Assembly: GCF_024199845.1 (NCBI RefSeq)
Contig: NZ_JANADO010000001.1
Coordinates: forward strand, 6,944,001-7,008,000
DNA: 64,000 nucleotides
From: Bradyrhizobium sp. CCGB12
GTDB lineage: Bacteria; Pseudomonadota; Alphaproteobacteria; Rhizobiales; Xanthobacteraceae
Direction of reading: 5' to 3'
Shown here: piece by piece, positions 55,660 through 63,376 of the stretch
How positions within the stretch are numbered: the stretch's first letter is position 1
Layout of the letters: each line of letters starts with the position of its first letter
Notes under the pieces: model-generated
Seen by the model: only the letters and a program-made list of their open reading frames with translations
Database searches by the model: none
Told to the model about the DNA's origin: nothing
Position numbers and translations under genes: made by a program

Positions 55660-57096
55660 ATGTTCGCGACCAACGAGATGTGCTTCAATGGCATGCTTTT
55701 CAATGTTTTGGCGTTCAATGGGCTGGCTGGATTTGTCATGAGATCGATGCTTGCGGCAACACTGATGTTCGCGGCCGCCACCGGCGCGCACGCCCAGATG
55801 ACGGCGCCGCAAGTCCCCGGCACCCAGCCGAAAACCGTCCAGACCGTTCCGATCAAGCCACCCGCAACGCAGACGCCGTCGGCGACGTCCGACGCCATGG
55901 CAAAAGCAGAGCGGCTGTCGCTCCAATCCGACCTCGCCTGGGCCGGCCAGTATAACGGCGCCATCACCGGCGACGTCAGCGAGCGCATGGTCAACGCCAT
56001 CAAGGAGTACCAGAAGGCCAAGGGCGGCAAGCCGACCGGCGTGCTCAATCCGCAGGAGCGCGCCGCGCTCGCCGAGGCCGCGCGCAAGAAGCAGGAGAGC
56101 GTCGGCTGGAAGATCGTGACGGAGCCGACCAGCGGCGCACGGCTCGGCATTCCCGGCAAGCTCTTGCCGCAGCAGGCAAGCGACGCCAATGGTTCGACAT
56201 GGACCTCGCCGACCGGCACGGTGCAGGTGCTGCTGAGCCGCCGCAAGGAGGTGAACCCGACCACGGCAAAGCTCGCCGACCTGGAGAAGGAGCCGACTGG
56301 CCGCAAGGTCGACTATACCGTGGTGAAGCCCGACTTCTTCGTGCTGTCGGGAGTGCAGGGGCTGAAGAAGTTCTACATTCGCGGCACCTTCAAGGGCGAC
56401 GAAGTCCGCACCATGACGATCCTCTACGACCAGGCGACCGAGAACACGGTCGATCCGGTCGTGATCGCGATGTCGAGCGCGTTCAATGCGTTCCCGTCGG
56501 GACCGCAGGCCGGGCCGCCGCCGCGCAAGACCGTCGAGTACGGCACGGGACTGGTTGTCAGTGACGACGGTGCGATCATCACCGACCGCCTCGTCACCGA
56601 CGGCTGTCTTGCGATCACGATCGGCGGCTACGGCAGCGCCGACCGGCTCGCCGAGGACAAGGAGCACGATCTCGCACTGTTGCACATCTACGGCGCGCGT
56701 GGCCTGACGCCGCTCAGCCTCGGCATCGGCGCAGCCAGGACGAATGTCGATGTCGTCGGCATCGCCGACCCGCAGAGTCAGGGCGGCGCGGCCGGCGTAT
56801 CGAGCGTCAAGGCTGCGCTGGCGCCGGCGACAAGCAGCAATGCCGCGCTGTCTCCCCCGCCGGCGGTCGGCTTCTCCGGCAGCCCGGCCATTGACGCCGA
56901 CGGCAAGTTCGCCGGCGTCGCGCTGCTGAAGCCGGCGATGGTTGCGGGACCTGCGACGTCGGTGCCGGCGTCACAGGCCACCATGGTCTCAGGTGGGACC
57001 GTGCGCGATTTCCTGAAGGCGAACGGTGTCACGGCGAATGGCACGTCGACGGACGCAAAGGCGGCTGTCGTGCGCGTGATCTGCGTGCGGAAGTAG
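55660..57096 (+). CDS. Exported trypsin-fold protein with peptidoglycan-binding-like domain, active-site His missing
   Basis: A protein of up to 478 residues. A signal peptide (MRSMLAATLMFAAATGAHA) begins at ATG 55738, the likely true start. A peptidoglycan-binding-like repeat (SDLAWAGQYNGAITGDVSERMVNAIKEYQ) follows. The C-terminal half has a chymotrypsin-like serine protease domain with GTGLVVSDDGAIITD, the Asp in EHDLALLHI and the Ser in GFSGSPAID. The position of the catalytic His (normally HxxxGC) reads LVTDGC, so no His is present. Either it is a pseudo-protease or the acid-base residue is elsewhere. Confidence 0.75.
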   Translation: MFATNEMCFNGMLFNVLAFNGLAGFVMRSMLAATLMFAAATGAHAQMTAPQVPGTQPKTVQTVPIKPPATQTPSATSDAMAKAERLSLQSDLAWAGQYNGAITGDVSERMVNAIKEYQKAKGGKPTGVLNPQERAALAEAARKKQESVGWKIVTEPTSGARLGIPGKLLPQQASDANGSTWTSPTGTVQVLLSRRKEVNPTTAKLADLEKEPTGRKVDYTVVKPDFFVLSGVQGLKKFYIRGTFKGDEVRTMTILYDQATENTVDPVVIAMSSAFNAFPSGPQAGPPPRKTVEYGTGLVVSDDGAIITDRLVTDGCLAITIGGYGSADRLAEDKEHDLALLHIYGARGLTPLSLGIGAARTNVDVVGIADPQSQGGAAGVSSVKAALAPATSSNAALSPPPAVGFSGSPAIDADGKFAGVALLKPAMVAGPATSVPASQATMVSGGTVRDFLKANGVTANGTSTDAKAAVVRVICVRK

Positions 57097-59115: not shown

Positions 59116-59274
59116 TTGGCTGTGTGAAAACGCGAAGACGCTCAATCGCGATAGAAGAAGTTATTCGTCCAAGACCGTTTTAATCGCTCAACGCGCAAGC
59201 GGATTCAACTTAGAGATCGAACTGAAAAATATCATTTTTTGTCGAGTTTCGATTTTTGAGTTTTTACACAGCCA
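59116..59274. mobile_element. Possible miniature inverted-repeat element (MITE)
   Basis: Inverted ends TTGGCTGTGTGAAAAC and GTTTTTACACAGCCA (15-16 nt with one or two differences) are ~160 bp apart and flanked on both sides by GGGTC, a possible 5-bp target duplication. No transposase is present. The interior is AT-rich. Confidence 0.45.
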
Positions 59275-59703
59275 GGGTCAGAAGGTGAAAAACTCAGAGT
59301 GAGCAGATCCTAGTCCGCCATGCCTAACGGAGCGGACGTCAATCCGAGCGCCACATCTGATGGGCCAGAAGCTGTCACGCGGCTCTGGCTTCAATCCCAA
59401 ACCTCGCGGAAGCTTTGAAGTAGCTCCGCCACCCGTATGCATTGCTACCCTGCTCAAGCCGATGCGATAGCCAGGTCCAAAGGGGCAGCAACCAGCACTC
59501 TTGCAGAAGATCTGCCCGCACGACTTGCCCGCCGTCTTGGGTACCCGCCTCCTAAGCGACCGCGCTTAGAGTACTATTCCCGCCGCGCCGAGGTCATAGT
59601 TCTCTACGCATTAGCAAACTTGCAGTTTGAATGATGCTAGCTGCAACGCAAAACCGACATCAGGCGAGGATACCACAACCGAGCCGTGCAGCTTTAGTCG
59701 AGG

Positions 59704-59731
59704 TTGACTAACCCGATAGACTCAATACTTT
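59704..59731 (+). promoter_or_regulatory. Candidate promoter of the hxs operon
   Basis: TTGACT at 59704-59709 is a good -35 hexamer; TACTTT at 59726-59731 (16-base spacer) or AATACT at 59724 are possible -10 elements. The hxsA start is ~25 bases further on, so the leader would be short. Confidence 0.35.
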
Positions 59732-59755
59732 GAGATGGCAAAAAGGGGGGACCAG

Positions 59756-60034
59756 ATGAGTCAGAATAAGATCTCGATTATTCCGCTTGCGGCCGCGCTC
59801 GCCTCGTTGGGAACTGCTGCCAATGCTGCCGTCCCTGCAGCGAACGAGGTCGTCGCGCAGCCGACGGACGTAGAGAAGGCATCGGCAGAAAAGTCTCAGG
59901 CGAACATGTTTTACCAGGTCGGACACGACCTACTGGGCATGATCGTAACCGCGAGAGAGGACGGCACGTTGTTCGCTGGTCATTCCTCGCATTCTTCTCA
60001 CTCGTCCCACTCGTCTCATCACTCAAGTCGCTAG
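59756..60034 (+). CDS. hxsA: His-Xaa-Ser repeat precursor peptide HxsA
   Basis: A 92-residue protein, the presumed precursor of a ribosomally made, post-translationally modified product. The N-terminus has a short basic start and a hydrophobic ISIIPLAAALASLGTAANA segment that looks like a Sec signal peptide with cleavage after about residue 24. A middle of ~50 ordinary residues follows. The C-terminus (76-92) is HSSHSSHSSHSSHHSSR: five His-Ser-Ser units plus one extra His. That repeat defines HxsA proteins and is the presumed modification site. AAAAGGGGGG lies just upstream of ATG 59756; an in-frame ATG at 59735 is less likely. HxsD begins 6 bases after its stop. Confidence 0.85.
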   Translation: MSQNKISIIPLAAALASLGTAANAAVPAANEVVAQPTDVEKASAEKSQANMFYQVGHDLLGMIVTAREDGTLFAGHSSHSSHSSHSSHHSSR

Positions 60035-60040
60035 AATTCG

Positions 60041-60346
60041 ATGGCAGCAAAAACCATCGAATTTGATCAAGCGACCCAGTCGCTTGAGGCGTTGAACGCT
60101 GCTGCCTACAGATTGCTCGGTTCGGCGATCTGTAAGGTCGAGCCGGTTGGGACCAAATATGTAGTCTCAGTGGAGGCATCCACGCCGGGCACAACCGATT
60201 CTGACGAATTAAACCAGCGTTTCATGGCGACAGTTATCGACGAGAATGTCAGGCAGCAAATTGCCCAACGAACCGAGCCGGTGCGGAATCTGATCTTGGC
60301 TCTCGCGTTTGGATCGCTTGCTCATCCGCTGAGCGAAAAGTCGTAG
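60041..60346 (+). CDS. hxsD: His-Xaa-Ser system protein HxsD
   Basis: A 101-residue protein. The C-terminal half contains NVRQQIAQRTEPVRNLILALAF, which resembles the conserved end (N-x-LR-x-x-IA...R-LI-A-AF) of HxsD, the small protein always found in His-Xaa-Ser loci. Its biochemical role is unknown; a precursor-binding partner of the maturases is an obvious but unproven idea. Sits between hxsA and hxsB with gaps of 6 and 7 bases, so one transcript is very likely. Confidence 0.78.
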   Translation: MAAKTIEFDQATQSLEALNAAAYRLLGSAICKVEPVGTKYVVSVEASTPGTTDSDELNQRFMATVIDENVRQQIAQRTEPVRNLILALAFGSLAHPLSEKS

Positions 60347-60353
60347 CAGAAAG

Positions 60354-61811
60354 ATGTCTCGCTTCTTTCTACCCGGCGACTTTCATGGAAGTAATGCGCC
60401 GCTGCAACTTTTGCCACTGCGCTTCGAGAGAACAAGCGCCCAGCAATATCTTGTCTCAAACATCGTTGGCGACTTCATTCGCCTCGATGCGGATGAATTC
60501 CAGCGGCTCATCGACCTCCGACTGAACCCAGGTGATGGCCTGTACGAGCGAGCGTATTCGGCGCACCTCGTGTCACGAGAAGGACAGAGCGCTCAGCATC
60601 AAATCTTGGCGATGCGGCTGCGAACTCGCATGTCGTTTTTGCGCCAACCATCCGCTCTCCACATGTTCGTAGTCACTCTCCGCTGCGAACATTCATGCCC
60701 CTATTGTCAGGTGTCTCGGCAGAGCACCGACCGTTCTCGTTTCGATATGTCCGAGGAGACAGCGCAGCGGTCCCTCTCCATCGCCCTTCAAAGCCCCGCG
60801 TCACGCATCAAGATCGAGTTTCAGGGGGGAGAGCCACTCCTGAATTTTGCTTTGATTCAAAAAGTCGTTGAAGCAGCAAAACGCGAGGCTCCAACCAAAG
60901 GTAAGGAGGTGGATTTCGTCATTGCGTCAAACTTGGCGCTTTTGACGGACGACATTTTGTCGTTCTGCAGGACGAACCACGTTTCCTTGTCGACATCGCT
61001 GGATGGTCCGCCGGATCTTCATAACCGCAATCGCCCGAGGCCGGGTGGAAATAGTCATGAACTCGCTGTCCAAGGTATCAAGAAAGCTCAGGCAACGTTG
61101 GGGCGTGATCGCGTAAGCGCGCTGATGACAACCACTCGGCAAAGCCTTGCTCGCGTCGAAGAGATTATCGACGAGTACGCTGCTCACGGCTTGGATGGCG
61201 TCTTCCTCAGACCATTGTCGCCATACGGCTTCGCAATCAAAACCAAGCAGTTTCAAAAGTATGACCCCGCCGAATGGATGACATTCTATCGGCGCGGGCT
61301 CCGATATATTCTCGATTTAAACCGCAGGGGACACGAGTTCTACGAATTCTATACACTCCTGTTACTGAGGCGAATCCTGACAGATCAGCCCATCGGGTAC
61401 GTCGACCTCCGAAGCCCTGCAGGAATTGGACTGGGCGCTCTCGTCTATAACTATGACGGCCGCGTGTTCGCGTCTGACGAAGGGCGCATGCTCGCCGAAA
61501 TGGGGGACCGCACCTTTGAATTGGGGCACGTCGCAAACAGCGATTATCGTTCTCTCATTTTGTCGGACAAGCTCGTATCAAACATTGCCTCTTCGCTGAG
61601 TCAGTGCGCACCGGAGTGCCACGATTGTGTGTACGAGAGCCACTGCGGCGCTGATCCGGTCTACCATCATGCCATTCACGCCGATCCCTTGGGTATCAAA
61701 CCGTTGTCTGGTTTCTGCCAGCGGCAGAAGGGGGTGATATCCACCATCCTCGATCTGCTTGACGACTCGCCGGAAGATGCGGTCGTGCTAAGATCATGGA
61801 GCATGATGTGA
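60354..61811 (+). CDS. hxsB: His-Xaa-Ser system radical SAM maturase HxsB
   Basis: A 485-residue radical SAM enzyme. The iron-sulfur CxxxCxxC is C111, C115 and C118 in TLRCEHSCPYCQVSRQ, and the SAM-binding GGEP is at 158-161. The C-terminal region has an auxiliary-cluster-like cysteine set: C418, C422, C425 and C431 in QCAPECHDCVYESHCG, and C455. This SPASM-like tail is typical of peptide maturases. The N-terminal ~100 residues are a family-specific part that may bind the precursor. Its stop codon shares one base with the hxsC start. It is expected to modify the His-Ser-Ser tail of HxsA; the chemistry is unknown. Confidence 0.85.
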   Translation: MSRFFLPGDFHGSNAPLQLLPLRFERTSAQQYLVSNIVGDFIRLDADEFQRLIDLRLNPGDGLYERAYSAHLVSREGQSAQHQILAMRLRTRMSFLRQPSALHMFVVTLRCEHSCPYCQVSRQSTDRSRFDMSEETAQRSLSIALQSPASRIKIEFQGGEPLLNFALIQKVVEAAKREAPTKGKEVDFVIASNLALLTDDILSFCRTNHVSLSTSLDGPPDLHNRNRPRPGGNSHELAVQGIKKAQATLGRDRVSALMTTTRQSLARVEEIIDEYAAHGLDGVFLRPLSPYGFAIKTKQFQKYDPAEWMTFYRRGLRYILDLNRRGHEFYEFYTLLLLRRILTDQPIGYVDLRSPAGIGLGALVYNYDGRVFASDEGRMLAEMGDRTFELGHVANSDYRSLILSDKLVSNIASSLSQCAPECHDCVYESHCGADPVYHHAIHADPLGIKPLSGFCQRQKGVISTILDLLDDSPEDAVVLRSWSMM

Positions 61812-62992
61812 TGCTGAAGCTTCGCGGCACGGCATCCTATGTGCGCGGATTTGAGACAGCGCACCCATCAGAGATCGTTCGTATATCTGCACCGACGAGC
61901 CGAGCCCGTCACTCGGTAGATGCAGCCGTAATCAAACATCCCGAAGAGGCTTGCGTCGCCTTCCAGTGTGGCTTCACGAAGGCTGTGCTGGTGGGTGATC
62001 ACACTGCGACACTTGAAAGCCCGTTCCGTGACCTCATGGTGGTCCCCCCCGAATACAACTATCTTGCGCATGGCGACCTGATCGGGCTGCAGCCACAAAC
62101 AGGAAAATTCCGGTCACTTTATCGGCGCGGATCTGATCACAATTCGTTCTTGGTAACCGAACGATGCAACCATAACTGCTTGATGTGCTCGCAACCGCCA
62201 CGAAATGTGGACGATCGATGGGTGCTGGATGAGATCAGCCGCGCACTGCCGTTCGTCGACCCCACGACCAGGTCGTTCGCATTCACCGGCGGCGAGACTC
62301 TGACCGATTGGCGGGAATTCATTGATCTCCTAACACAATGCAAGTCGACCTTACCGAATACTGCTGTTCATGTGCTCACAAACGGGCGGGCGTTTGCACG
62401 TACAGAGGTGGCTGCTGCTTGGGCAGAAGTGCAACATCCGCAACTAACTGCTGGCATACCGATATACGCAGCCGTGGACCACATCCATGATTACGTTGTC
62501 CAAGCGAAGGGCGCGTTCGACGAGACCGTTCTTGGCATTTTGAAACTGAAGGACCGAAAGCAACGGGTGGAAATTCGTGTCGTACTCCATGCCTTGACGG
62601 CCCCGACCATCGCGGAGACGTGCCGATGGCTTGCGCGCAACCTTCCGATTGTGGATCATGTTGCGTTGATGGGGCTTGAGAACACCGGCTTTGCGATCGC
62701 GAACGATGCCATGCTCTGGATCGACCCTCTCGACTACCAAGAAGGCCTTGCTGAAGGAGTTGCCGCTCTCACCTCAGCGGGGGTCAGGGTTTCGATCTAT
62801 AATCTGCCGCGCTGTGTGTTGCCGCGATCTGTTTGGCCTCAGGCGGTTCAATCCATCTCCGATTGGAAGAACGCCTATGTCGAAGCATGCTCAGGCTGTA
62901 TCGAGAAGAAACGCTGCAGCGGTTTTTTCACCACTGGTCGGCCCCGCATCAGTCGCGGAGTTTCACCGATCTTGGAGGCTAACCCGGCTTAA
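61811..62992 (+). CDS. hxsC: His-Xaa-Ser system radical SAM maturase HxsC
   Basis: A 393-residue second radical SAM enzyme. CxxxCxxC is C119, C123 and C126 in TERCNHNCLMCSQPP, and the GGET motif is at 160-163. C335, C360, C363 and C369 near the C-terminus (EACSGCIEKKRCSGFF) may hold another cluster. The N-terminal ~110 residues are specific to HxsC. ATG 61811 overlaps the hxsB stop (TGATG); an in-frame ATG at 61796 is an alternative. Two different radical SAM maturases in one operon is the hallmark of the His-Xaa-Ser system. Confidence 0.85.
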   Translation: MLKLRGTASYVRGFETAHPSEIVRISAPTSRARHSVDAAVIKHPEEACVAFQCGFTKAVLVGDHTATLESPFRDLMVVPPEYNYLAHGDLIGLQPQTGKFRSLYRRGSDHNSFLVTERCNHNCLMCSQPPRNVDDRWVLDEISRALPFVDPTTRSFAFTGGETLTDWREFIDLLTQCKSTLPNTAVHVLTNGRAFARTEVAAAWAEVQHPQLTAGIPIYAAVDHIHDYVVQAKGAFDETVLGILKLKDRKQRVEIRVVLHALTAPTIAETCRWLARNLPIVDHVALMGLENTGFAIANDAMLWIDPLDYQEGLAEGVAALTSAGVRVSIYNLPRCVLPRSVWPQAVQSISDWKNAYVEACSGCIEKKRCSGFFTTGRPRISRGVSPILEANPA

Positions 62993-63376
62993 TTTATCAG
63001 CAAAAGGGTGGACAAAGTGAACCCACTCTTGTTCGCGCTGATAAGCGCGAAAGCCAGAGCTCCTGCAACAACGCGGGGCCAAGGCTCCGTCCAATTCCAC
63101 AAGGCCAATTTTCTTGTTCGGCTTGAGTCGGGATACTGGCTCAAAGCGGTCAGCTCAAGGCTAAAGGCGGCGGGCGATGGCTGAGAGACAGTGAGCGCTC
63201 CCGCAGGCAACAATATGAAGGAGCGAATCGGAATGGGGCCAGGGACCGATCGCGCGAGACGGCGAGCAGAAAATTGCCGTCGCTTCGAGTCGTTAGCGCG
63301 ACCTGTCCTTCTCAGCCGGGAGATCACGAAGCTATTGCATTCAGAATTGAGTAGGGTCGGATTTATGACAAACGCT
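62993..63376. other. Region between hxsC and the terminase gene, no certain gene
   Basis: About 385 bp between convergent genes. A small plus-strand frame (63017-63184) is listed separately. Other frames here (63191-63418 plus strand, 62989-63387 minus strand) lack recognisable sequence and overlap each other or the terminase gene. Confidence 0.5.
63017..63184 (+). CDS. Small unknown ORF following hxsC (tentative)
   Basis: A GTG-initiated 55-residue frame 24 bases after hxsC, with AAAGGGTGG at a good distance upstream, similar to the site in front of hxsA. It starts NPLLFALISAKARAPA and ends LKAAGDG. I do not recognise it. It could be a real extra operon member or chance. Confidence 0.22.
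   Translation: MNPLLFALISAKARAPATTRGQGSVQFHKANFLVRLESGYWLKAVSSRLKAAGDG

What the first reader, a model, noticed from the sequence alone, without database searches (positions are those of the whole stretch)
59756..62992. His-Xaa-Ser (hxsA-D-B-C) radical SAM peptide-modification operon
Seen directly: a 92-residue peptide ending in HSS repeats, a 101-residue partner, and two radical SAM enzymes with different CxxxCxxC sequences, separated by 6, 7 and -1 bases. Established knowledge: HxsA/B/C/D families were defined by comparative genomics (TIGRFAMs) as a likely modification system; to my knowledge the product and its function are not well described. Inference: HxsB and HxsC act in turn on the His-Ser-Ser tail, perhaps making crosslinks or altered residues. 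No peptidase or transporter is in the operon.
Basis: partly seen in the sequence, partly recalled or inferred. Interest (0 to 1): 0.88.

Follow-up and report, generated by a model that had tools for sequence, protein, structure and literature searches.

The report
Mobile His-Xaa-Ser peptide-modification cassette (hxsA2-D-B-C)
Four neighbouring genes make a small protein with a repeated histidine-x-serine tail and two iron-sulfur enzymes that probably rework that tail; the family is known by name but its product is not, and the comparison here suggests an exported protein, probably kept in the cell envelope, encoded by a cassette that moves between mobile elements.

Summary
In detail: hxsA2, hxsD, hxsB and hxsC lie at 59756-62992 with gaps of 6, 7 and -1 bases, and all four pass curated NCBIfam cut-offs. 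One correction: the peptide is HxsA2 (NF038296), not HxsA (TIGR03979, 21.5 of 121.65 bits). It is a new member of a known kind; I found no product described in the held library. What comparison adds: (1) 107 of 118 related precursor ORFs hold a signal-peptide-like start (shuffles 25.7; HxsD 3 of 104), and some carry peptidoglycan-binding or PEGA domains: probably exported and envelope-kept, which would explain the missing transporter and peptidase. (2) The unit is His at i and Ser at i+2 (568 of 571 triplets) with a free middle residue, the geometry of three-residue cyclophanes that radical SAM enzymes make, some on His. (3) The operon is a mobile cassette found on plasmids, prophages and islands and across phyla; in E. 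coli it shares cargo slots with defence genes, but a wider neighbour test did not single out defence. Chemistry and function remain inferred. Interest moderate.

The parts
59673..59755 (+). conserved upstream part of the cassette, with a purine-rich ribosome-binding stretch just before the start
   Evidence: similarity to the closest locus by DNA (L163, same genus, 82.6%) begins at 59673; sequence. The promoter scan found none here.
59756..60034 (+). hxsA2, precursor of 92 aa: signal-peptide-like N-terminus (about residues 1-24, by eye), conserved pre-core stretch (GxDLLG...DG...A), His-Xaa-Ser tail (residues 76-92)
   Evidence: NF038296 59.2 bits, cut-off 48; alignment A1 of 32 rows with H76, S78, H79, S81, H82, S84, H85, S87 invariant; signal-peptide-like features by a script heuristic
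60041..60346 (+). hxsD, partner of 101 aa, predicted strand-helix-strand-strand-long helix
   Evidence: TIGR03976 53.0 bits, cut-off 50; model pLDDT 91.8
60354..61811 (+). hxsB, radical SAM enzyme of SPASM kin with an extra N-terminal region like that of PDB 5wgg; radical SAM Cys 111/115/118 and one auxiliary-cluster Cys set 422/425/431/455
   Evidence: TIGR03978 593.3 bits, cut-off 370; invariant columns; model pLDDT 92.2; fold matches
61811..62992 (+). hxsC, second radical SAM enzyme with its own set of four further invariant Cys
   Evidence: TIGR03977 365.1 bits, cut-off 267.9; alignment A3 of 13 rows

Best explanation
A mobile, self-contained cassette that makes one exported, post-translationally modified protein. 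Steps: (1) HxsA2 is made with an N-terminal segment that serves as Sec signal and probably also as leader (inferred; about 75%). (2) HxsB, helped by HxsD and by its own extra N-terminal region, binds the precursor in the cytoplasm (inferred). (3) HxsB and HxsC abstract hydrogen atoms in the H-x-S units and change them; the most likely product is a row of three-residue cyclophanes, each joining the imidazole of His(i) to C-beta of Ser(i+2), with loss of 2 Da per unit (inferred; about 50% for a His-Ser crosslink of any kind). (4) Sec exports the protein, signal peptidase removes the leader, and the stiff, perhaps metal-binding tail stays in the cell envelope (inferred; about 65%). No dedicated transporter or peptidase is needed. 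The benefit is unknown; protection of the host or of the element against other mobile elements or phages is my leading guess at about 25-30%. Shown here: family membership, the conserved pattern, and mobility.
For: Family membership above curated cut-offs. All 15 loci of one set have an HxS precursor beside hxsBC, as do 113 of the 117 loci in which HxsB was found, of 118 examined (without one: L075, L100, L107, L123; the set holds a few loci twice). Signal-peptide-like start: 107 of 118 precursor ORFs when every Met before the repeat may be the start, 81 of 118 when only the listed start counts; mean 25.7 in 20 shuffles; HxsD 3 of 104, HxsB 2 of 117, HxsC 8 of 100 by the generous rule. Of 10 long precursors scanned, three carry PG_binding_1 and one PEGA. 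Third position Ser in 568 of 571 triplets while the middle position takes 17 residue types. Precedents for i to i+2 links by radical SAM enzymes, with His C2 as one partner (HaaB, YhhB) and Ser C-beta as the other (MscB), in passages of PMC11002830. HxsB aligns to the YhhB model over 107-469 at 74.4 bits. No Cys in the window's HxsA2, so thioethers are excluded there. Mobility.
Against: No chemistry was tested. HxsB scores higher against PapB, the quinohemoprotein amine dehydrogenase maturase and nif11 maturases (98.7, 97.1 and 94.3 bits) than against YhhB (74.4), so similarity does not pick the reaction. The signal-peptide test is a home-made heuristic, not a trained predictor, and depends on the start codon chosen. 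Pfam finds no domain in 6 of the 10 long precursors. HxsA2 itself has no Pfam domain, so in this window envelope retention is by analogy. The neighbour test did not single out defence.
Confidence: 0.5

Rival explanations
1. The enzymes oxidise or epimerise single residues of the tail (for example Ser to formylglycine, as anaerobic sulfatase maturases do, or D-amino acids) instead of crosslinking. The changed Ser would then react with envelope amines or shape a metal site.
Against: The equally strict His is unexplained by Ser oxidation alone; HxsB does not reach the sulfatase maturase cut-off (65.8 of 349.45 bits). Two different radical SAM enzymes for one simple oxidation would be unusual (general knowledge).
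Confidence: 0.25
2. The HxS tail is a metal-binding tail (Cu, Zn, Ni) whose affinity is tuned by the modification; the system serves metal storage or metal tolerance on mobile elements.
For: Regular His spacing; mercury resistance genes and a cutA gene lie near hxs on the one Klebsiella plasmid viewed.
Against: Apart from the hxs genes, no gene cluster recurs in more than 14 of 118 loci, and none of the 26 clusters listed looked by eye like a metal gene, though they were not annotated. The strict Ser is unexplained by metal binding.
Confidence: 0.15
3. A classical RiPP: the tail is cut off and secreted as a bacteriocin or signal.
For: Small precursor beside peptide-modifying radical SAM enzymes.
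Against: No transporter or protease recurs widely: of the clusters, two seen in four loci each look by eye like transporters, somewhere within about 10 kb. In 24 of 28 precursor ORFs that lie downstream of hxsB the repeat is internal, with more than 60 further residues, PG_binding_1 in the three scanned; that does not fit release of the repeat alone.
Confidence: 0.1

Closest known systems
His-Xaa-Ser (Hxs) systems, NCBIfam TIGR03976-TIGR03979 and NF038296 (described by Haft and Basu, as cited in PMC9062424, passages seen)
   Same: All four window proteins pass a family cut-off; a precursor-first layout is the commoner one (90 of 118 precursor ORFs lie upstream).
   Different: Precursor is the short HxsA2 type without the PG_binding_1 domain found in the three downstream precursors scanned.
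Triceptides / three-residue cyclophane-forming radical SAM enzymes (HaaB, YhhB, MscB, OscB, XncB; passages in PMC11002830)
   Same: i to i+2 motif with an aromatic first residue; His and Ser are each known partners; radical SAM with SPASM kinship.
   Different: HxsB is far below the cut-offs of the YhhB, GrrM/OscB, FxsB and XyeB models, lacks the AuxI Cys and works beside a second radical SAM enzyme and HxsD; no product known.
PDB 5wgg, a thioether-forming sactipeptide-type maturase (CteB; the short name is recalled)
   Same: Closest solved relative by sequence (E 5e-30), Foldseek E 2e-21, aligned from HxsB residue 20 and chain residue 1 on.
   Different: Makes thioethers; the window's precursor has no Cys; AuxI Cys missing in HxsB.
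Anaerobic sulfatase-maturating enzyme (PDB 4k36-4k39)
   Different: Aligned only from about HxsB residue 99 on; HxsB misses the AuxI Cys; family cut-off not met.

Membership tests
His-Xaa-Ser system | HxsB above TIGR03978 cut-off | tested here: met
   593.3 bits, cut-off 370
His-Xaa-Ser system | HxsC above TIGR03977 cut-off | tested here: met
   365.1 bits, cut-off 267.9
His-Xaa-Ser system | HxsD above TIGR03976 cut-off | tested here: met
   53.0 bits, cut-off 50, a narrow pass
His-Xaa-Ser system | HxsA2 precursor above NF038296 cut-off | tested here: met
   59.2 bits, cut-off 48
HxsA proper (TIGR03979) | score above TIGR03979 cut-off | tested here: not met
   21.5 bits, cut-off 121.65; no Pfam domain
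Three-residue cyclophane-forming enzymes | motif with an aromatic residue at i and a fixed residue at i+2 in the precursor | tested here: met
   third position Ser in 568 of 571 triplets, middle residue free; the precursors had been picked with His every third place and S, T or A allowed at i+2
Three-residue cyclophane-forming enzymes | membership in a known cyclophane-forming family | tested here: not met
   YhhB 74.4 of 445, GrrM/OscB 53.6 of 310, FxsB 43.2 of 370, XyeB 37.3 of 450 bits (best 25 of 63 families shown)
Three-residue cyclophane-forming enzymes | a C-C link between ring and C-beta in the product | not testable with these tools
   needs mass spectrometry and NMR
SPASM radical SAM maturase | radical SAM core plus Cys for two auxiliary clusters | tested here: not met
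   by sequence only: core Cys and C422/C425/C431 invariant and C455 nearly so in 56 rows; the AuxI Cys of 5wgg and anSME align to other residues (which Cys bind which cluster is recalled)
RiPP recognition element in HxsB | PqqD-like N-terminal domain | tested here: inconclusive
Anti-phage defence system | matches a PADLOC model of a known system | tested here: not met
   only weak matches of HxsB and HxsC to viperin models, best 34.1 and 24.3 bits; none for HxsA2 and HxsD
Anti-phage defence system | neighbours enriched in defence genes | tested here: inconclusive
   PADLOC families matched: 69 near 27 hxs loci, 106 near 27 integrases, 26 at 27 control places; E. coli slots suggestive

The most novel reading that the evidence does not exclude
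Hxs is a mobile 'envelope armour' cassette: a Sec-exported protein whose tail is turned into a row of His-Ser three-residue cyclophanes and then fixed to peptidoglycan or another envelope layer by exchangeable domains, carried by plasmids, prophages and integrative elements in slots shared with defence systems, where it protects the host or the element against competing phages or elements. That would be a RiPP-type modification retained on the cell wall, not released.
Probability: 0.15. Interest if true: 0.8.

Novelty: new member of a known kind. Interest (0 to 1): 0.45.

Why it matters
Hxs operons are widespread (153 of 5,426 complete E. coli genomes have a match, 139 over at least 80% of the operon query; 509 plasmid records with an HxsB-like match), yet I found no product described in the held library. 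The comparison turns 'two radical SAM enzymes of unknown product' into concrete tests: export, envelope location, and 2 Da lost per H-x-S unit. If right, it would add a class of wall-retained, radical-SAM-modified proteins and a new kind of cargo to mobile elements.

Tried and rejected
HxsB as a single query in viral contigs: no relative; the alignment A2 found 18. Literature for a product: searches gave none; several listings were capped (20 of 27, 14 of 17, 20 of 29 and 20 of 325 shown). Searches asked about prophage hotspots and the TIGR04141/DUF6119 neighbour. The founding paper (JB.00040-11) is not held and is cited from PMC9062424 and recall. PMC8446631: one passage seen, which only lists hxs genes in a Pseudomonas aeruginosa genome study. 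PMC9122126 (0 hits for radical SAM or His-Xaa; section 10 read), PMC9519451 and PMC10121019 (find only) do not hold those terms in their main text.

Defence as general function: PADLOC on the five nearest genes of at least 100 aa. Cases: 27 of 29 hxs loci (the script found no HxsB/C in L171 and L172), 135 proteins. Control places: 27 of 29 (two contigs too short), of which 24 were drawn at random and three were a fixed stretch of contig 1; 134 proteins, one of 2,125 aa left out. Integrase loci: 27, picked by me from the list to avoid Xer-like ones, two genomes left out because only such were listed; 132 proteins, two from the short L243. Families matched at E up to 1e-8: 69, 26 and 106. The tool counts families, not proteins, and prints 25. 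Reading: hxs neighbourhoods look like mobile-element neighbourhoods, not specially like defence islands.
Full report
What is there. At 59756-62992 on the + strand lie four genes in one tight run: a 92-residue peptide, a 101-residue protein and two radical SAM enzymes, separated by 6, 7 and -1 bases. NCBIfam names them HxsA2 (59.2 bits, cut-off 48), HxsD (53.0, cut-off 50), HxsB (593.3, cut-off 370) and HxsC (365.1, cut-off 267.9); the peptide fails the HxsA model TIGR03979 (21.5 of 121.65). hxsC is better started at 61811 than at 61796, by its nearest relatives. The Ser codons of the tail are mixed, so it is not a fresh DNA repeat. The genome holds one HxsA2 and one HxsB above the cut-off.

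The precursor. Thirty-one of the 120 listed homologues (142 found) were aligned with it: H76, S78, H79, S81, H82, S84, H85 and S87 are invariant, a stretch GxDLLG...DG...A before the tail is conserved, and the start is a charged, hydrophobic, Ala-rich segment. HxsB was found in 117 (not in L104), and an HxS ORF near it in 113 of them; four loci had none (L075, L100, L107, L123). The 118 precursor ORFs lie upstream of hxsB (90) or downstream (28, one of them a spurious frame in L154). By a home-made rule 107 of 118 have a signal-peptide-like start if any Met before the repeat may be the start, 81 of 118 if only the listed start counts; the mean in 20 shuffles is 25.7. Under the generous rule HxsD gives 3 of 104, HxsB 2 of 117 and HxsC 8 of 100. 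Seventy-nine of the 90 upstream precursors end within 15 residues of the repeat, while 24 of 28 downstream ones run on for more than 60 residues. Of ten long ones scanned, three carry PG_binding_1 and one PEGA; six have no Pfam domain. I read this as export with retention in the envelope; for HxsA2 itself retention is by analogy.

The unit. Over 97 distinct runs and 571 triplets, the third residue is Ser in 568, Ala in 2 and Trp in 1, while the middle one takes 17 kinds of residue, Ser, Ala, Arg, Tyr and Gly being commonest. The precursors had been picked with His every third place and Ser, Thr or Ala allowed at i+2. A fixed His(i) and Ser(i+2) with a free residue between is what a link from i to i+2 would need. 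A review (PMC11002830, passages seen) tells of radical SAM enzymes that make such three-residue cyclophanes: C2(His)-C-beta(Ala) by HaaB, C2(His)-C-beta(Arg) by YhhB and C4(Phe)-C-beta(Ser) by MscB. A His-Ser link would join two known partners. There is no Cys in the window's precursor, so no thioether there.

A mobile cassette. The operon's GC is 0.552 against 0.650 in the first 55 kb of the window; the stretch from about 57.1 kb on is low too (0.587). To its right come a P27 terminase small subunit, a DNA methylase (PF01555) with a weak ParB-like part, a serine recombinase below the named models' cut-offs, and then what looks by eye like a housekeeping trehalose-phosphate gene. DNA similarity to 21 near loci (15 distinct by contig) is limited to the operon: the closest, L163, is 82.6% alike over 59673-63001, and no flank match over 80 bases at E up to 1e-8 was seen in any of the 21. 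Genomes with HxsC, the window's own counted each time: 13 of 146 of the genus (one with a stop inside, one a partial match), 7 of 385 of the class and 15 of 398 of the phylum. A tree of 49 HxsB, chosen by me from 79 rows, puts the window in a fully supported set of 14 rows: 8 Pseudomonadota, 5 Actinomycetota and the window itself. Plasmids: 509 records with an HxsB-like match, 324 of them Klebsiella, 390 with at least 80% of the query covered; some weak ones will be other radical SAM enzymes. Phages: in the Leptospira phage LE1 record all four genes are annotated. E. coli: 153 of 5,426 genomes, all on chromosomes.

What it is for. In E. coli one relaxase-type integrative element carries hxs beside ABC-three-component or SIR2 genes (L179, L180, L181, L191). 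I viewed six elements from the 127 genomes with that relaxase, picked from the 60 listed; one had hxs (L191). The five hxs-free ones carry, in that place, ABC-three-component genes (L190), SIR2 plus a three-component ABC set (L192), restriction-type genes (L193), UvrD helicase plus a nuclease (L194), or DRT3 antiviral reverse transcriptases and ABC-three-component genes (L195). In one P2-like prophage hxs sits between ogr and gpD, a slot that other prophages leave empty or fill with other genes. This points to defence or competition between elements. Against it: hxs itself matches no PADLOC system, and around 27 hxs loci 69 PADLOC families matched, between control places (26) and integrase neighbourhoods (106). 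On plasmids and another E. coli locus viewed, other cargo lies nearby: resistance genes, toxin-antitoxin genes, a Tn7-like transposition set. So 'mobile cargo' is shown, 'defence' is a guess.

Verdict. It is a new member of a known kind. The added value is a testable model: export, envelope location and His(i)-Ser(i+2) links, encoded by a hopping cassette. The paper that described the system was not held; what I say of it comes from PMC9062424 (passages) and recall.

Noticed in passing
window 59117-59274: A short element with 20-base inverted ends (85% complementary) and nine similar places in the genome, the window's included: a MITE-like repeat upstream of the operon.
   Followed up: partly
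window 57100 to about 8 kb past the window end (L006): Low-GC island with a short ParA-like gene, a GNAT gene, hxs, P27 terminase small subunit, a DNA methylase with a weak ParB-like part and a serine recombinase.
   Followed up: partly
window 55660-57096: Protein with a stretch resembling the peptidoglycan-binding end of HxsA (21.5 bits to TIGR03979) and a weak protease-like part; a protein that clusters with it follows hxsA directly in L035.
   Followed up: partly
L023:11565-13178, L179, L180, L183: TIGR04141 / DUF6119 protein of unknown function directly after hxsA in enteric loci.
   Followed up: partly
L038, L052, L061, L070, L073, L074, L083, L114, L115, L116: A gene that looks by eye like a SAM-dependent methyltransferase recurs within about 10 kb of hxs in 10 of 118 loci from several phyla.
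   Followed up: no
L056, L062, L076, L080: Loci with two HxS precursor ORFs for one enzyme set.
   Followed up: no
G811:C1:190294-190992, G779:C146:86176-86676: Same-genus genomes with an hxsC match that has a stop inside, and one that covers only positions 2-167 of the model: possible loss.
   Followed up: no
L182, L185-L189 (P2-like prophages of E. coli): The place between ogr and gpD is a variable cargo slot, distinct from the A-Q hotspot described in PMC9122126.
   Followed up: partly
L179-L181, L190-L195: An E. coli relaxase-type integrative element whose cargo place held defence-type genes in the elements viewed.
   Followed up: partly
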